Source: Lysobacterales bacterium
GTDB taxonomy: Bacteria > Pseudomonadota > Gammaproteobacteria > Xanthomonadales > BPKI01
DNA length: 64,000 bases
NCBI GenBank assembly: GCA_026005055.1
Contig: BPKI01000001.1
Location: 1,488,001 to 1,552,000, forward strand
Reading direction: 5' to 3'
Positions within the stretch are counted from its first letter, which is position 1, and each line of letters starts with the position of its first letter. Of the stretch, positions 10,179 through 16,668 are shown piece by piece. The notes below the pieces were generated by a model. The model saw only the letters and a list, made by a program, of their open reading frames with translations, did no database searches and was not told the DNA's origin. The position numbers were made by a program, and so were the translations under genes.

Positions 10179-11046
10179 GCTGCGCACGGCGGCGGGGCAT
10201 CTGCTGCGTGAGTGCGATCCTGCGCGCAAATGCGAGGGTGTGCTCGCACTGGCGGAGGCCTGGCGAAGCGGGGAGGAGCTCTTCCTTGATGCGGAGGCGA
10301 TGGCCCCTGGGCCTGCGATCGACTCGCCGGGAAGGCCCGATCGCCCCCCGCTGGTGCCTCCCGAGCGGCTCGCGCGTCGCAGCGTGCGGACGCGCGAGGG
10401 CCGGATCGCTCTGCTTCATGCGCTCGGCCACATCGAGTTCAACGCGGTCCAACTCGCGCTCGATGCGGTGTGGCGCTTTCCGGGCTTGCCCGAGAACTAC
10501 TACGAGGATTGGCTCGGGGTCGCCGCGGACGAGGCTCGGCATTTTTCCTGGCTGTGTGAGCGCCTTCGTGCGCATGGTGCGAAATACGGCGACTTGCCGG
10601 CTCACGATGGCCTTTGGCAGGCGGCGCTCGCCACCGCCGGCGACCCGCTCGAGCGTATGGCCCTCGTGCCGCGGGTGCTCGAGGCGCGAGGCTTGGACGT
10701 GAGTCCGAGCCTCATCGCGGCGTTCGAGGCTGGCGGCGATCCCGAGAGCGCTGCGGTGCTTCGGGCGATCCTCGAGGAGGAGATCGGGCACGTCGCGATC
10801 GGCTCGCGCTGGTTCCGCTACCTGTGCGAGCAGCGGGGGCTTGATCCGGACGCGGCCTTCGCCGCGTTGATTCCTCGCGCCGCGCGCGGTGCGCTGAGAG
10901 GGCCGCTGAACCGGGCGGCGCGGCTCGCCGCCGGCTTCAGCGAATCGGAGCTCGCCGCGCTTGCAGCGATGGTTCAGTCGGAGCCCGGCGCGAGCCAGTC
11001 TTCGATCGCGGCGGCGAGCGCGGGTGCCGAGTCGTTGCGCTCGTAG
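10165..11046 (+). CDS. DUF455 ferritin-like protein
   Basis: A 293-residue protein of the DUF455 (ferritin-like) family, function unknown. The helical bundle carries the carboxylate/histidine pairs expected of a di-metal site: HIEFNAVQLALD (about residue 92), ADEARHFSWLCERL, and EEEIGHVAIGSRWF near residue 210. The ATG at 10165 lies within the end of alr, so translation is probably coupled. The 3' end runs 73 nt into the convergent glycosyltransferase gene, so the last 24 codons (Ala/Ser-rich) are encoded opposite that gene's end and may not be under strong constraint. Confidence 0.85.
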   Translation: MCRLELRTAAGHLLRECDPARKCEGVLALAEAWRSGEELFLDAEAMAPGPAIDSPGRPDRPPLVPPERLARRSVRTREGRIALLHALGHIEFNAVQLALDAVWRFPGLPENYYEDWLGVAADEARHFSWLCERLRAHGAKYGDLPAHDGLWQAALATAGDPLERMALVPRVLEARGLDVSPSLIAAFEAGGDPESAAVLRAILEEEIGHVAIGSRWFRYLCEQRGLDPDAAFAALIPRAARGALRGPLNRAARLAAGFSESELAALAAMVQSEPGASQSSIAAASAGAESLRS

Positions 11047-13085
11047 AGCGCATGGGCTGTCGAGGCGAGCCGGGCGCGCCAGCTCGACTTTCGCTCCGCC
11101 TCGCGGGCGAAGCGGCGAGCGAGCGCGAGCAGCGCTTCGCGGTCGGGCGCCACCAGCTCCTCCGCTCCGATGAGGGCGAGCATCGCGGCACTTTGCCGGG
11201 CGCGCATGAAACGCCCTGGGGCGGTCAGCACCGGCAGGGCGACGGAAAGCGCATCGAGGGTGGTATTGCCACCGGACCAGCGCAGGCAGTCGAGGAGGAA
11301 ATCGCAGCAGGCGGCGACGGCGAGATAGCGCTGGCGCGGCATCAGGGGTAGCCAGAGCAAGCGGCTTCGGGCATCCACGCCTTTGCGCGCGAAGGCGTCG
11401 AGCAATCTCTGCTCGAGCCGGGCGCGGAAGGAGGGTCGCTCGCCCTCGAAGAGCACGAAGCGAAGCGCGGGCTCGCTTGCCGCCAGATCGGCGAGCAGCT
11501 CGTCGTTCTCGGGATGGATCTTGAAAGGGCTGTGCGGGTAGAAGACCAGCACGGTCTCCTGGGGCAGGCCGAGCGCCGTCCGATCGAGCGGCTCCGGCGG
11601 AGGCGGGCGGGGATAGGCGGTGCCGATGCCCGGAAGCAGAATGAGCCGTTCGCGGTAGTGTTCCCTCGCGTCCGCTGGCTCCATGGCGGCCACCGAAAGG
11701 AACCCGTCGATGGTCGGCAAACCGCTGCTGATGGGATGCCCCCAGGCGCAGAGTTGCACCGGCGCCAGCCGCAGGGCGGCGAGGGCGAAGACGCGCGCAT
11801 CCATCCCGAGCTCCGGGTAGAGGATCAGGTCGAAGCCCGCCTCGGCGATCCATCGCGCCAGCGCATCGGGGCCTTCATCGTGGAAGCGAAAGCGATCGGC
11901 GCTGCGGGCCAGACGCTCGGTCATGGCATCGCGGCGCGGCCCGAGCTGGACCAGGGTGAGCTCGAATCCGGCCCGGCGCAGCGCCTCGGGCCAGCTCGCG
12001 AAATAGTGCCCGACCGTCGAGTCGCGGAAAAAGCTGCTGATCATCGCCACACGTCGACCGCCTCGCTTGCGGCGAGCGGCGATGCGAGGTCCCAGGGGAC
12101 GAGCGAGGGCGGCGAGCAAATCGCCGAGACGGGCGAGCAAATCCCGATCCGACTCCCCGTGATAGGCGAGGAGAAAGGGCGCGTGGCCGATGTCCTCGAG
12201 GGAGCTCGCGCGCAGCATCCCCGCGCGGTGCGCTTCCTCGAGGCGCTGAAGCCCGCGGACGAAATCTTCGCGCCAAGCGTCGAGCTCGGCACGATGGAGC
12301 GGCACCGCTCCGAGTGCGAGCTCCGCTTTCAAGCGGGCGGCGAGCCCCGACTCCCCTCGGGCCTCGCGACGCCGCGCCACGGTCCGAAGCAGCGCCCGCG
12401 CCGGCCCGATCTCCCCATCGAGCGCCAAGAGAGCGCCGAGCTCCTCGGCGAGGGCGGTCTGCGCATCGACCAGGCCTTCGATCGCTCCCCGGGATGCAGG
12501 GAGGTCCTGCCGCGCCATGAGCTCGGCGGCCACGCGCAGCGCATTGGCGGCGAGGGGCGGGGGGAGGGTCGGGGGCAAGGCCTCGAGCTGGGCGAGGGCG
12601 GAGGCCGGCTCATCCTCGAGTTCGGCCGCGAGCAACCTCGCCTCGGCATCTTCCGGCACGAGCCGCAGCGCCTCGCGGCAGGCGGCGAGCGCCTCGGTGC
12701 GCCGCCCTCTCGCCTGCTCGTAGAGCGCGAGATTGAACCACGCCTCGGGCAGCTCGGGCCAGATCGTGGTGGCACGACGAAGATCCTCCCCGGCACCGGA
12801 GAGGTCGCCGTTGCGCAGTCGGCGAGCCCCGCGGCGGTTGAGGGCCCGGGCGAGCACCCGTGCCAGGTCGGCTCGCCCCAGGGCGCTCAACAGATCGAGC
12901 GCGGAGATCGCCTCGTCGAGCTCTTCGAGGAGGAGATCGGCATTCGCGAGGAGCGCGAGCGCCTCGGGACGGTTCGGTTGCTCGGCGAGGATACGCTTGG
13001 CCAGCTCGCGGGCTCGATCGGCTCGACCCGCGGCGAGCGCACGCTGCCCGAGGAGCAGCCAATGTTCGGCAGGAGGCCGATTCAC
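10974..13085 (-). CDS. TPR-containing O-GlcNAc-transferase-like glycosyltransferase (SPINDLY/GT41)
   Basis: A 703-residue protein. Residues 1 to about 170 form TPR-like helical pairs (LGQRALAAGRADRARELAKRI; AWFNLALYEQARGRRTEAL). The C-terminal half from about residue 365 matches the glycosyltransferase 41 fold: HYFASWPEAL, DLILYPELGMD, LAPVQLCAWGHPISSG, REHYRERLILLPG and WSGGNTTLDAL. Enzymes of this family transfer GlcNAc, glucose or fucose to protein Ser/Thr; bacterial targets include adhesins and flagellins. GTG 13085 was chosen because further upstream the frame runs through the divergent DUF6165 gene. The neighbours DUF6165 and kdkA suggest an envelope role. The acceptor cannot be told from sequence. 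Confidence 0.85.
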   Translation of the reverse strand: MNRPPAEHWLLLGQRALAAGRADRARELAKRILAEQPNRPEALALLANADLLLEELDEAISALDLLSALGRADLARVLARALNRRGARRLRNGDLSGAGEDLRRATTIWPELPEAWFNLALYEQARGRRTEALAACREALRLVPEDAEARLLAAELEDEPASALAQLEALPPTLPPPLAANALRVAAELMARQDLPASRGAIEGLVDAQTALAEELGALLALDGEIGPARALLRTVARRREARGESGLAARLKAELALGAVPLHRAELDAWREDFVRGLQRLEEAHRAGMLRASSLEDIGHAPFLLAYHGESDRDLLARLGDLLAALARPLGPRIAARRKRGGRRVAMISSFFRDSTVGHYFASWPEALRRAGFELTLVQLGPRRDAMTERLARSADRFRFHDEGPDALARWIAEAGFDLILYPELGMDARVFALAALRLAPVQLCAWGHPISSGLPTIDGFLSVAAMEPADAREHYRERLILLPGIGTAYPRPPPPEPLDRTALGLPQETVLVFYPHSPFKIHPENDELLADLAASEPALRFVLFEGERPSFRARLEQRLLDAFARKGVDARSRLLWLPLMPRQRYLAVAACCDFLLDCLRWSGGNTTLDALSVALPVLTAPGRFMRARQSAAMLALIGAEELVAPDREALLALARRFAREAERKSSWRARLASTAHALYERNDSAPALAAAIEDWLAPGSD

Positions 13086-13190
13086 CGGCGTTTCGCACCT
13101 TGTTGCGGAAAAGCGACGATCGTTGCGCAGACGCCGCGAATCCCCTGATGATGCGCGGGTCCTCGGATCCAAACGTCCGTATTCGGCATC

Positions 13191-13607
13191 ATGGCGATGG
13201 TGGAGATTCGCGTCCCCGTGTCGGTCGGCGAACTGCTCGACAAGATCGCGATCCTCGAGATCAAGTCCGAACGCATCACGGAGCCCAACAAGAGGGAGAA
13301 TGTCTTGCGCGAGCTCGCGGCGCTGCGCATGGTCTGGGAGGAGTCTCCGCTCTCGCGCCTCGATCTCGAGGCGCTGCGCCGAGCCTTGCGCGAGGTGAAC
13401 GAGCGGCTCTGGGACATCGAGGACGCGATCCGGGACAAGGAGCGACAGGGCGATTTCGGCGCGGAGTTCATCGAACTCGCGCGCAGCGTTTATCTCCAGA
13501 ACGACGAGCGGGCGCGGATCAAGAGGGAGATCAACCTTCGCACCGGCTCGGCGCTGGTCGAGGAGAAATCGTACCGTGAGTACCGTCGCGACGGCGCTCC
13601 AGCTTGA
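13191..13607 (+). CDS. DUF6165 family protein
   Basis: A 138-residue, mostly helical and highly charged protein that I recognise as DUF6165, a family without known function often found beside LPS or glycosyltransferase genes. The start is well conserved (MVEIRVPVSVGELLDKIAIL), followed by KRENVLRELAALR and a REVNERLWDIEDAIR coiled-coil-like helix. No membrane segment or signal peptide is seen. Start ATG 13191 or 13197. It overlaps kdkA by 32 nt, so the two products are probably made together. Confidence 0.75.
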   Translation: MAMVEIRVPVSVGELLDKIAILEIKSERITEPNKRENVLRELAALRMVWEESPLSRLDLEALRRALREVNERLWDIEDAIRDKERQGDFGAEFIELARSVYLQNDERARIKREINLRTGSALVEEKSYREYRRDGAPA

Positions 13608-14337
13608 GAGCGGGACGATCCGGCGCATCCCGTTCTCGGGCGGCGCCATGCTCTCGGTGTCGCGGCTCGCCGAGACCGTCGAGGCATCATGGTTCGATCC
13701 GGCGCGTTGGCTCGGGCATGGCCGCCTCCACGATACGGCAGGCGGTCGCGGCGGCAGCCTGGTGGTCAGGACGCCGATTGGCCCGGTCCTGCTCCGCCGT
13801 TATCTCCGCGGCGGCATGGCGGCTCGCTTCAGCCGGGACCGTTATCTCTACCGCGGGGAGGAGGCGACCCGCAGTTTCCGCGAGTTCCGCCTGCTCCACG
13901 AGCTCTCCGAGCGCGGCCTGCCGGTGCCAAGCCCTCTCGCCGCGGCCTACTGGCGGCAGGGTCTGTTCTACCGGGCGGCGATCATGCTCCACTTCATCCC
14001 CGGCGCCCGGCCGCTGCCGCTGCTCTTCGAGGATCTGGCGGAGCCTGACTTTCTCGCCATCGGGCGGGCCGTGGGGCGTCTGCATGCGGTCGGCGTGCGC
14101 CACGCCGACCTCAACGCCTGGAACGTGCTGCTCGATACCGAACGCAGCATCTGGATCGTGGACTTCGACCGTGCGCGGATTCTCCGACGACCGACCCTCG
14201 GCGCGAGCCGGGCGGTGCTCGCCCGATTGCGGCGATCCTTCCACAAGCTCGCCGCCGACCGGCGGGTGAGGCGTTTCGAAAGCTGCTGGGCGGCCCTGCT
14301 CGACGGGCACGCGCAGGCGTTTCTCAAGCCCGCCTGA
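13576..14337 (+). CDS. kdkA: 3-deoxy-D-manno-octulosonic acid (Kdo) kinase
   Basis: A 253-residue kinase of the KdkA/WaaP fold, which phosphorylates the Kdo residue of the LPS inner core at the cytoplasmic face of the membrane. The kinase core is visible: RRYLRGGMAARFSRDRYL for nucleotide binding, the catalytic loop HADLNAWN at 176-183 (Asp178), and the metal-binding segment IVDFDRAR with Asp196. The length fits (about 240 in Haemophilus). It starts at GTG 13576 within the end of the DUF6165 gene; ATG 13648 is a shorter alternative. The GT41 gene is divergent next door. Organisms with KdkA typically carry a single phosphorylated Kdo. Confidence 0.88.
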   Translation: MSTVATALQLESGTIRRIPFSGGAMLSVSRLAETVEASWFDPARWLGHGRLHDTAGGRGGSLVVRTPIGPVLLRRYLRGGMAARFSRDRYLYRGEEATRSFREFRLLHELSERGLPVPSPLAAAYWRQGLFYRAAIMLHFIPGARPLPLLFEDLAEPDFLAIGRAVGRLHAVGVRHADLNAWNVLLDTERSIWIVDFDRARILRRPTLGASRAVLARLRRSFHKLAADRRVRRFESCWAALLDGHAQAFLKPA

Positions 14338-14353
14338 GCCGCATCTTTTTTTT
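14314..14353 (+). terminator. Possible Rho-independent terminator after kdkA
   Basis: CAGGCG (14314-14319) pairs with CGCCTG (14331-14336) around an 11-nt loop, at the kdkA stop. Nine nucleotides later comes a run of eight T (14346-14353). The gap between stem and T-tract makes it weak. Confidence 0.4.
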
Positions 14354-14455
14354 CTCGAGCGCGGATCGGCCCGGAGGGATGCTTTCTCCTCCCGGACCCC
14401 CTTGCGTCAAAAGCCCTCTGGTGCCATGGTGGAGTCGCTTCGGAGGGGCAGGGCC

Positions 14456-14695
14456 ATGCGGGTGACGATCCAGTATTTCGCGGCTCTGAGAGAGGCGGCG
14501 GGACGTTCGGAGGAAAGTCTCGACACGGCGGCCTCCGACCTCGATCGGCTGCTTCACGAGCTTCGCGCGCGTCATGGCTTTGCGCTGGCGCGCGAGGATC
14601 TCCGCGTGGGTCGGAACGGCCGGCTCGCCGACTGGCGGAGCGCGTTGTGCGAGGGCGATCGCATCGCGATCATGCCGCGGTTCTCCGGTCTATGA
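14456..14695 (+). CDS. MoaD-like ubiquitin-fold protein lacking the terminal Gly-Gly
   Basis: A 79-residue beta-grasp protein. The body follows MoaD, the small subunit of molybdopterin synthase: MRVTIQYFAALREAAGRSEE, a central helix DLDRLLHELRARHG, then VGRNGRLADW and EGDRIAIMPRFSG. Canonical MoaD ends in Gly-Gly, whose thiocarboxylate is the sulfur donor; this protein ends Phe-Ser-Gly-Leu, so the last glycine is replaced by leucine. As written, it should not be adenylated or thiocarboxylated normally. The stop is joined to the next start (ATG 14692 overlaps TGA). The ATG at 14456 follows GGGGCAGGG. It may be a diverged paralogue of MoaD; no other molybdenum cofactor gene is nearby. Confidence 0.75.
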   Translation: MRVTIQYFAALREAAGRSEESLDTAASDLDRLLHELRARHGFALAREDLRVGRNGRLADWRSALCEGDRIAIMPRFSGL

Positions 14696-15114
14696 AGCAT
14701 TTCGCGCTCAGCGATCAACCCATCGACCCGGATGTCATGCGGCCGGGCTTGCGCGCCGCCTATCCGGCCGCCTACCTCGAGTTTCAGGCCCTCGTACCTG
14801 CCGAATGGCAGGCACGCGCCGTCGCCGGCATGGACGTCGAGGCGGTGCCTGGGCTGAGCGAACGCGAAGCGGAAGCGCTGATCGAGGAGATCCTCGCGCG
14901 ACGGCCGGAGATCGAGATGGCCGGCGTTCACCGGGTGGGGAGTCTCGCGGTCGGGGACTGCGTGGCCTGGATCGGTCTCGCCGGCGTGCGCTTTGAGATT
15001 CTGCAGGCGGCGCTCGATGAGCTCATCGCGCTGTTCCGCGAGCGGGTGCCCATCTGGAAGCGGCTGGTATTCCAGGATGGCGAGCAGATGTGGTTGGAGC
15101 GCGGCGGACCATGA
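14692..15114 (+). CDS. MoaE-like protein with degenerate active site
   Basis: A 140-residue protein aligning with MoaE, the large subunit of molybdopterin synthase: MKHFALSDQPIDPD at the start, AGVHRVGSLAVGD in the middle and ERVPIWKRLVFQDGEQMW at the end. The HRxG and PxWKR segments are retained. The FxGxVR motif that supplies an active-site arginine reads FQALVPAEW, the family's HYExY reads MDVEAVPG, and the His-Arg/Phe-Ala segment after VGV is changed to LAGVRFEILQAAL. With its MoaD-like neighbour lacking Gly-Gly, this looks like a pair that has lost or changed molybdopterin synthase activity. The stop overlaps the M28 start (ATGA). Confidence 0.72.
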   Translation: MKHFALSDQPIDPDVMRPGLRAAYPAAYLEFQALVPAEWQARAVAGMDVEAVPGLSEREAEALIEEILARRPEIEMAGVHRVGSLAVGDCVAWIGLAGVRFEILQAALDELIALFRERVPIWKRLVFQDGEQMWLERGGP

Positions 15115-16448
15115 GCGTCATTCTCGCCGGGCTTCTGTTCGTCTGCGCGGCTGCGGACAGTCGGCCAGTGCCGACCGTCGTTCTGCCGGCACGCGAAGGA
15201 AACACCGCGGTGGCGCTGCGTGCCGACCCGCGGATCGCCTTCGTGCTCGAGCTGGGCGGGGAGGTGCTCGCCGGGGTCGCGGATCGCGAATTCTTCGCCC
15301 GGCTCGCGGCGGGCGAGGGAAACCGCATCGGGCCGATGCTTTCTCGAGACGAGCTCATGGTGCGCGAGCGGGTGTGCCCGGACCTCGATCCTCGGCCTCC
15401 GCTGCTGCGCGTGGGCGGATACGAGCTCCTGCGTGCGCCTCCCGCCCTGCGCCGTGCCGCCGAGCGTGCTGGGCGCGCCTTGGCGGTGCCGGGCGATGGC
15501 GTTCTCGCCCGACCCTACCGCGCCTGGCCTGAGGCCAAGCAAACGAGCGCGGCCGATCCCGCGGTCGCCGGCCTGGTGGCGCGAGTCGATGCCGAGCGCT
15601 GGTTCGCGACCATGGCCGAGCTCGCATCCTTCCCGCGCAACAGCTACGGCAGCGGCATCCACGCCGCCCACGATTGGATCCTCGCTCGCTTCGCCGAAGC
15701 AGGGCTCCAGACCTCTTCCCACGCCTTCTTGCTCTCGGTTCCGGGCTGCCCGGGAAGTCCGCTGCTCGGCAACCCGATCGGCATCAAACCAGGCGGCAGC
15801 CGCGCCGGGGAATGGATCGTCGTCGGCGCTCACTACGATTCGCGCAACCACTCGGCCTGCGACGGCGCGGTGCAGCCGCGTCCCGGAGCCAATGACAACG
15901 CCTCCGGCTGTGCGGGGGTAATCGAACTCGCGCGCGTGTTCCAAGGCGTGCGGACCGATCGCAGCCTCGTGTTCGCCTGCTTCTCGGGTGAGGAGCAGGG
16001 GCTGCGCGGCAGCAGTGCCTGGGTCCAGACGCTGATCGACAGCGAACAGCTCGGCCGGGTCCGGCACATGATCAATCTCGACATGATCGGGCACGCGATC
16101 GACGATCGCCTCGAGACCCGGGTCGAAACGAGCGCGGAGCATGCTGGCTGGCTTCCCGTGTACGGTGCCGCGGCGGCGCTCTATGCGCCCTCGCTCACCG
16201 TCTATCTCCAATCCAGCACCGCAGCCTACAGCGACCATTGGCCGTTCCTGCAGCGCGGGGTTCCTGCCGTCTTCACTTGGGAGAACGGCGCGAGCATCTA
16301 TCCGCACTGGCACCGCACCACCGACCTGCCCTCGAATATGCTCCGGGCGCGGGAACTCGCCGGTGGCATTCTGCGGATGGACACCGCCGTGCTCGCCGAA
16401 CTCGCGGGAATCTGGGGTCTGTTCGACGACGGTTTCGAGGGACCCTGA
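15111..16448 (+). CDS. Secreted M28-family zinc peptidase
   Basis: A 445-residue protein with a short signal peptide (MSVILAGLLFVCAAADS) and an M28 aminopeptidase domain. Metal and catalytic motifs appear in order: GAHYDSR (His241, Asp243), GANDNASGCAGV, FSGEEQGLRGS, INLDMIGH and HWHRTTD. M28 enzymes are di-zinc exopeptidases; here the protein is exported. An extra domain of about 150 residues precedes the catalytic part and is not recognised. The start overlaps the MoaE-like stop (ATGA), so the three genes share a transcript although molybdopterin biology and an exported peptidase have no obvious link. Confidence 0.87.
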   Translation: MSVILAGLLFVCAAADSRPVPTVVLPAREGNTAVALRADPRIAFVLELGGEVLAGVADREFFARLAAGEGNRIGPMLSRDELMVRERVCPDLDPRPPLLRVGGYELLRAPPALRRAAERAGRALAVPGDGVLARPYRAWPEAKQTSAADPAVAGLVARVDAERWFATMAELASFPRNSYGSGIHAAHDWILARFAEAGLQTSSHAFLLSVPGCPGSPLLGNPIGIKPGGSRAGEWIVVGAHYDSRNHSACDGAVQPRPGANDNASGCAGVIELARVFQGVRTDRSLVFACFSGEEQGLRGSSAWVQTLIDSEQLGRVRHMINLDMIGHAIDDRLETRVETSAEHAGWLPVYGAAAALYAPSLTVYLQSSTAAYSDHWPFLQRGVPAVFTWENGASIYPHWHRTTDLPSNMLRARELAGGILRMDTAVLAELAGIWGLFDDGFEGP

Positions 16449-16581: not shown

Positions 16582-16668
16582 TGGTGCCGAAGGTGGGACT
16601 CGAACCCACACTCTGTCGCCAGAAACGGATTTTGAGTCCGCCGCGTCTACCAGTTCCGCCACTTCGGC
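16582..16668 (-). tRNA. tRNA-Leu(CAA)
   Basis: An 87-nt class II tRNA on the minus strand. The acceptor GCCGAAG pairs with CTTCGGC, then A and an encoded CCA. The anticodon loop CTCAAAA within CGGA/TCCG gives CAA. A long variable arm is present, as in leucine tRNAs. Confidence 0.97.

What the first reader, a model, noticed from the sequence alone, without database searches (positions are those of the whole stretch)
14456..15114. MoaD/MoaE-like pair without the molybdopterin synthase active site
The MoaD-like protein ends Phe-Ser-Gly-Leu, not Gly-Gly, so it cannot form the normal C-terminal thiocarboxylate. The coupled MoaE-like protein keeps its HRxG and PxWKR segments but has lost the FxGxVR arginine and the HYExY region. 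Both changes together, in intact coupled genes, suggest a maintained pair with a new job rather than a decayed one.
Basis: partly seen in the sequence, partly recalled or inferred. Interest (0 to 1): 0.7.

Follow-up and report, generated by a model that had tools for sequence, protein, structure and literature searches.

The report
Orphan MoaDE pair, active site lost
A bacterium that appears to have lost the whole molybdenum-cofactor pathway still keeps an intact, overlapping gene pair descended from molybdopterin synthase in which most known catalytic residues are gone, so the pair is either a non-enzymatic complex with a new job or an unusually long-lived remnant.

Summary
MoaD-like 14456-14695 ends PRFSGL, whereas 137 of 137 relatives end in GG.

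The genome (2.44 Mb, one contig, 99.96% complete) has no other MoaE and no match to MoaA, MoaC, MogA/MoeA-type or two molybdoenzyme family models. Its single Molybdopterin-domain hit is NuoG. So the guessed second canonical moaDE is absent, but so, it seems, is molybdenum-cofactor metabolism. Among 398 genomes of the order it is the only clear MoaE-positive, MoaC-negative one.

In 74 of 80 relatives kdkA lies 1.6-3.4 kb upstream of moaD (moaA-moaC between, where examined); here the gap is 118 bp. The pair is thus the in-situ remnant of a moa operon.

It does not look like plain decay: frames, codon bias and fold predictions are intact, and substitution patterns reject uniform neutral drift. 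Best reading: a maintained, non-catalytic pseudo-molybdopterin synthase (0.55). A slow relic or a translational-coupling passenger is not excluded. No ortholog of the variant was found.

The parts
14456..14695 (+). MoaD-like protein, 79 aa, beta-grasp fold, C-terminus PRFSGL instead of PPVSGG
   Evidence: ThiS E 3.6e-13; AF2 pLDDT 92.7
14675..14692 (+). codons of the altered C-terminal tail P-R-F-S-G-L (functional MoaD: P-P-V-S-G-G)
   Evidence: 137/137 other MoaD end GG; other frames do not give GG
14692..15114 (+). MoaE-like protein, 140 aa, start overlaps the moaD stop (ATGA)
   Evidence: MoaE E 1.9e-8; AF2 pLDDT 93.3, pTM 0.85; Foldseek: MPT synthase large subunits
14797..14799 (+). codon of P36 where all relatives have Arg (E. 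coli R39, cPMP anion pocket)
   Evidence: pocket residues from PMC9916421
14989..14994 (+). codons of R100-F101 where all relatives have His-Arg (E. coli H103-R104, cPMP anion pocket; the D. radiodurans equivalent of R104 is needed for dimerisation)
   Evidence: PMC9916421
15037..15039 (+). codon of R116 where all relatives have Lys (E. coli K119)
   Evidence: catalytic role of K119 from general knowledge
15058..15060 (+). codon of K123, retained (E. coli K126), in R-V-P-I-W-K
15064..15066 (+). codon of L125 where all relatives have Glu (E. coli E128)
14338..14455 (.). 118-bp gap between kdkA and moaD; in relatives 1.6-3.4 kb lie here, with moaA and moaC in the locus read in full. Site of the in-situ loss
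13576..14337 (+). kdkA (Kdo kinase), ancestral upstream neighbour of the moa operon
   Evidence: NF002475 E 8.5e-65, over cut-off; upstream of moaD on the same strand in 74/80 relative loci
13191..13607 (+). DUF6165 protein, also an ancestral neighbour of the locus
   Evidence: found in 51/80 relative loci
15111..16448 (+). M28-family peptidase, probably secreted; ATG overlaps the moaE stop (ATGA). A new neighbour, absent near moaE in the 80 relative loci
   Evidence: signal peptide judged by eye

Best explanation
The pair is a maintained pseudo-molybdopterin-synthase. Shown: it descends in place from the moaD-moaE end of an ordinary Lysobacterales/Xanthomonadales moa operon; moaA and moaC are gone, and the genome has no detectable Moco pathway or Moco enzyme of the families searched; the C-terminal Gly needed for thiocarboxylation and all three cPMP-pocket residues are replaced; both frames, coding signature and overlap are intact; the pattern of change is not uniform, as if the retained residues were selectively kept. 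Inferred: the two proteins still form a MoaD-MoaE complex, because Gly substitutions in MoaD do not stop complex formation (PMC4326299, citing E. coli work). The MoaD tail, now ending Phe-Ser-Gly-Leu, would sit permanently in a remodelled pocket that keeps basic residues (R100, R116, K123), and the complex would act by binding a protein or ligand rather than by sulfur transfer. The partner is unknown.
For: Only one MoaE in the genome; the other ThiS-family hit is a true ThiS next to thiG. No MoaC, MoCF_biosynth, MoaA C-terminal domain, MoCoBD_1 or Oxidored_molyb; the PF00384 hit is NuoG between nuoF and nuoH. Active-site losses at columns invariant in 139 relatives and the FSGL tail against 137 GG tails. 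GC1/2/3 of moaE 0.77/0.44/0.82 and moaD 0.72/0.53/0.76, in the range of neighbouring genes (GC3 0.76-0.86), against 0.64 in the flanking spacer. Uniform neutral decay to 37/72 conserved sites lost would leave no stop with probability 0.01-0.2 and no frameshift with about 0.02 or less. Changed conserved sites need 1.59 nucleotide steps against 1.21 (sd 0.08) under uniform neutrality, like functional relatives (1.45). Fold predictions are confident and the MoaE-like model matches MPT synthase large subunits.
Against: No ortholog of the variant among 84,980 species genomes by the pattern scan or among 398 genomes of the order, so conservation of the new state and dN/dS cannot be measured. The BLOSUM test of conservative replacement is only borderline (P 0.02-0.25). 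The equivalent of R104, needed for MoaE dimerisation in D. radiodurans, is lost. The position as leftover of a partly deleted operon fits a relic too. The AF2 models were built on canonical homologues, so they say little about present stability. The neutrality tests use a consensus as stand-in for the ancestor and indel rates I chose.
Confidence: 0.55

Rival explanations
1. Slow relic: the pair is what is left after moaA and moaC were deleted. It had no function afterwards and is drifting, but has by luck kept its frames so far.
For: In-situ remnant of the moa operon; no Moco pathway left; most catalytic residues lost; singleton; very long branch. If only part of the losses came after release (10-15 sites), survival of both frames is not improbable.
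Against:: full neutral decay to the observed state would very rarely leave both frames open; excess multi-step changes at lost sites show that the retained sites are not a random half. Coding signature intact. In the other MoaC-negative genomes of the order no clear MoaE survives.
Confidence: 0.27
2. Translational-coupling passenger: the two ORFs are kept open only because ribosomes reading moaD-moaE deliver translation to the overlapping M28 peptidase gene; their amino-acid sequence is free to drift.
For: ATGA overlaps at moaD/moaE and moaE/M28; M28 is a new neighbour; frames are open although the active site is lost.
Against: Predicts uniform drift at amino-acid sites, which rejects; fold-determining residues (HRxG, PIWK, several glycines and tryptophans) are kept.
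Confidence: 0.1
3. Still a sulfur-transfer enzyme with changed chemistry or substrate, using a MoaD-like carrier that ends in Leu or is trimmed, activated by the genome's rhodanese-MoeB fusion.
For: A MoeB/ThiF-rhodanese protein is present; K126 is kept and the replacements at H103 and K119 are still basic.
Against: Both terminal glycines are required for MPT synthase activity (PMC4326299); trimming Leu would leave only one Gly; the MoeB is explained by the true ThiS; no pterin precursor enzymes.
Confidence: 0.06
4. Ordinary active molybdopterin synthase of an unusual sequence.
For: Homology and gene order.
Against: Terminal Gly and pocket residues lost; no upstream or downstream Moco genes and no Moco enzymes of the families searched.
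Confidence: 0.02

Closest known systems
Molybdopterin synthase MoaD-MoaE of Lysobacterales/Xanthomonadales (e.g. Arenimonas, Xanthomonas, Luteimonas)
   Same: Gene order moaD-moaE, place downstream of kdkA, protein lengths, predicted fold, 35-39% identity of the best MoaE matches
   Different: GG tail, R39, H103, R104, K119 and E128 lost; moaA and moaC absent; genome without a detectable Moco pathway
Drosophila Mocs2B/dMoaE in the ATAC complex (moonlighting MoaE, PMC9228816)
   Same: Precedent for a MoaE domain with a non-Moco, protein-binding role
   Different: There MoaE carries an MBIP domain and resembles MPT synthase; here a standalone bacterial pair without the active site
M. tuberculosis MoaX / MoaD2-MoaE2 (PMC4326299)
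   Same: MoaD-MoaE family; Gly mutants show what loss of the terminal Gly does
   Different: MoaX is active after cleavage that frees its Gly-Gly; this MoaD has no Gly-Gly to free
Prokaryotic beta-grasp (Ub-like) families without a C-terminal Gly (PMC1779556)
   Same: A ThiS/MoaD-like fold without the terminal Gly occurs in other families
   Different: Those are separate families; this one is a recognisable MoaD still paired with MoaE
Organisms with only part of the Mo utilisation trait (PMC6147048)
   Same: Partial retention of Moco-related genes
   Different: The majority there keep orphan molybdoproteins without the full pathway; here the kept genes are the synthase pair itself, catalytically altered

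Membership tests
MoaD (molybdopterin synthase small subunit) | ThiS/MoaD beta-grasp family match | tested here: met
   Pfam ThiS E 3.6e-13; AF2 model with the strands and helices of that fold, not searched against structures
MoaD (molybdopterin synthase small subunit) | C-terminal Gly-Gly for thiocarboxylate formation | tested here: not met
   Ends FSGL; 137/137 others end GG; both Gly required for activity (PMC4326299)
MoaD (molybdopterin synthase small subunit) | Passes the curated moaD equivalog model TIGR01682 | tested here: not met
   37.6 bits against cut-off 66.15
MoaE (molybdopterin synthase large subunit) | MoaE family and fold | tested here: met
   Pfam MoaE E 1.9e-8 over cut-off; Foldseek top hits are MPT synthase large subunits
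MoaE (molybdopterin synthase large subunit) | cPMP anion pocket R39/H103/R104 | tested here: not met
   P36, R100, F101; invariant in 139 relatives; role from PMC9916421
MoaE (molybdopterin synthase large subunit) | Catalytic lysines K119 and K126 | tested here: not met
   K119 is Arg, K126 kept
Moco biosynthesis pathway | MoaA, MoaC, MogA/MoeA and Moco enzymes in the genome | tested here: not met
   No match in own genome; PF00384 hit is NuoG
MoaD-MoaE heterotetramer | Physical MoaD-MoaE complex and MoaE dimer | not testable with these tools
   No complex prediction on hand; the R104 equivalent, needed for dimerisation in D. radiodurans, is lost
Pseudogene | Stops, frameshifts, loss of coding signature, uniform substitution | tested here: not met
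   Frames intact; GC3 periodicity; non-uniform substitution
Gene under purifying selection in its present form | dN/dS below 1 among close relatives | not testable with these tools
   No ortholog of the variant found

The most novel reading that the evidence does not exclude
After losing moaA, moaC and, as far as can be seen, all other molybdenum-cofactor genes, a Lysobacterales lineage kept moaD-moaE in place and turned the enzyme into a non-catalytic MoaD-MoaE complex with a new binding or regulatory function, possibly together with the newly overlapping, probably secreted peptidase gene.
Probability: 0.5. Interest if true: 0.62.

Novelty: new variant of a known kind. Interest (0 to 1): 0.5.

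Why it matters
Moonlighting roles of MoaE are discussed in animals, but there Moco synthesis continues, so the second role cannot be separated from the first. A Moco-free bacterium with an intact, catalytically altered moaDE pair would separate them and give a simple system for asking what a MoaD-MoaE complex can do without sulfur transfer. It is also a clear case of a pathway lost in place with only two of its genes kept, and a caution for annotators who infer molybdenum use from moaE alone.

Tried and rejected
Second canonical moaDE in the genome: searched, absent. Frameshift or sequencing error at the MoaD end: other frames give no GG. MAFFT's 4-residue gap after GVR was rejected: own and canonical segments have the same length, and the larger alignment is ungapped there, so H103/R104 correspond to R100/F101. 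Orthologs of the variant: viral contigs and genome contigs gave none; an alignment with E. coli MoaE was too divergent to search with. Tree: the own branch is about 10 changes per column and its place is unsupported, so no position is claimed. BLOSUM conservativeness test: borderline, not used as evidence. Promoter/terminator scan: nothing. Two genomes (G021, G397) have marginal MoaE matches (E 0.003-0.004) without MoaC; G021 has no Pfam MoaE match, G397 was not checked. Papers on pseudo-MoaE or MoaE without MoaC: none found.

Full report
Observation. MoaD-like 14456-14695 (79 aa) matches Pfam ThiS (3.6e-13) and MoaE-like 14692-15114 (140 aa) matches Pfam MoaE (1.9e-8). They overlap by ATGA. 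A GGAGG-type ribosome-binding site lies before moaD (read by eye). Neither reaches the NCBIfam cut-offs for functional MoaD or MoaE.

Active site. I compared the pair with 139 MoaE and 137 MoaD proteins from the same order and from named genomes. Some of these loci are the same record fetched twice, so the numbers of independent sequences are a little lower. Every other MoaD ends in GG, 114 of them PPVSGG; this one ends PRFSGL. Residues that never vary in the other MoaE proteins are replaced here: R39 to P, H103 to R, R104 to F, K119 to R, E128 to L (E. coli numbering). R39, H103 and R104 form the cPMP anion pocket, and the D. radiodurans equivalent of R104 is needed for dimerisation (PMC9916421). 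The roles of K119, K126 and E128 are from general knowledge of E. coli MoaE. Both terminal glycines of MoaD are essential for activity, yet their substitution does not stop MoaD-MoaE complex formation (PMC4326299). F34, K126, the HRxG motif, R-V-P-I-W-K and several glycines and tryptophans are kept. Of 55 conserved MoaE columns own keeps 24; the next lowest relative keeps 38. In MoaD 11 of 17 are kept, and 4 of the 6 losses lie in the last eight residues.

Genome. The genome is one contig of 2.44 Mb, 99.96% complete. It has one MoaE; the other ThiS-family hit is a true ThiS, ending GGG, beside thiG. There is no match to MoaC, MoCF_biosynth, which covers MogA, MoaB and MoeA, the MoaA C-terminal domain, MoCoBD_1 of the xanthine dehydrogenase family or Oxidored_molyb. 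The single Molybdopterin-domain hit is NuoG between nuoF and nuoH (named from sequence and neighbours). A rhodanese-MoeB fusion and TcdA are present; the former is explained by ThiS. So the genome appears to be Moco-free; molybdate transporters and other Moco-binding families were not searched.

Rarity. In a sample of 101 genomes of the order, MoaE and MoaC occur together; G000 is the only MoaE-positive, MoaC-negative genome. In 398 genomes the same holds apart from two marginal MoaE matches at E 0.003-0.004. Two scans of genomes of 84,980 species found no ortholog of the variant. The second kept the best 80 of 236 and began at 39% identity with canonical MoaE. These scans need short matching motifs, so a diverged ortholog could be missed.

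Origin. In 74 of 80 relative loci kdkA lies upstream of moaD on the same strand, 1.6-3.4 kb away, and DUF6165 is nearby in 51. In the locus read in full, L071 of Arenimonas fontis, the order is DUF6165, kdkA, a metallo-beta-lactamase-fold protein, moaA, moaC, moaD, moaE (the middle genes named from their sequence). Here DUF6165 and kdkA are followed after 118 bp by moaD. The pair is therefore the in-place remnant of the ancestral moa operon. Downstream an M28 peptidase gene, not seen near moaE in the 80 relatives, overlaps the moaE stop by ATGA.

Decay or maintenance. Codon-position GC is that of an ordinary gene of this genome (moaE 0.77/0.44/0.82; neighbours' GC3 0.76-0.86; spacer 0.64). If all conserved-site losses had come by uniform neutral drift, simulations give a 0.01-0.2 chance of no stop and about 0.02 or less of no frameshift, depending on assumed base composition and indel rate; for only 10-15 losses the chances are much better, so a shorter relic phase is not excluded. 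Changed conserved sites need on average 1.59 nucleotide steps, against 1.21 (sd 0.08) under uniform drift to the same number of changes: 0 of 2000 simulations reach this at the 90% threshold and 0.7-1.4% at 98%. Functional relatives show 1.45. This says that the changed sites moved far while the others were held. Positive selection at the changed sites, or earlier changes in the ancestor, could contribute. A test of conservative replacement was borderline and is not counted. AlphaFold models of both proteins are confident (93.3 and 92.7) and the MoaE-like model matches MPT synthase large subunits, but they were built with canonical homologues.

Mechanism. Shown: loss of the thiocarboxylate-bearing residue and of the substrate pocket, loss of pathway and users, retained open frames and fold-determining residues. 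Inferred: the proteins still pair; the Leu-ending tail occupies a pocket that is still basic; the complex works by binding. The partner is unknown. The rivals, slow relic and translational-coupling passenger for the M28 gene, are weaker but alive, because without orthologs selection on the present form cannot be measured directly.

Known context. Moonlighting of MoaE is described for Drosophila and human MPT synthase (PMC9228816), in organisms that still make Moco. A survey of partial Mo-utilisation traits reports mainly orphan molybdoproteins (PMC6147048). I found no paper on a MoaDE pair without active site in a Moco-free organism in the library on hand.

Noticed in passing
window 10974-13649 (-) and 13191-13607 (+): A long ORF, judged by eye as TPR plus SPINDLY/O-GlcNAc-transferase-like, overlaps on the opposite strand the DUF6165 gene; DUF6165 is near kdkA in many relatives too.
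   Followed up: partly
window 15111-16448: M28 peptidase gene with apparent signal peptide, start codon overlapping the moaE stop; not found near moaE in 80 relatives.
   Followed up: partly
G000:C1:294580-295287 (L069): Rhodanese-MoeB fusion kept in a genome without a MoaD ending in GG; probably activates ThiS.
   Followed up: partly
G021 and G397 of the order: Marginal matches to the own MoaE protein in genomes without MoaC; could be chance or further diverged relics.
   Followed up: no
window 16582-16668 (-): tRNA-Leu (caa) downstream of the M28 gene.
   Followed up: no
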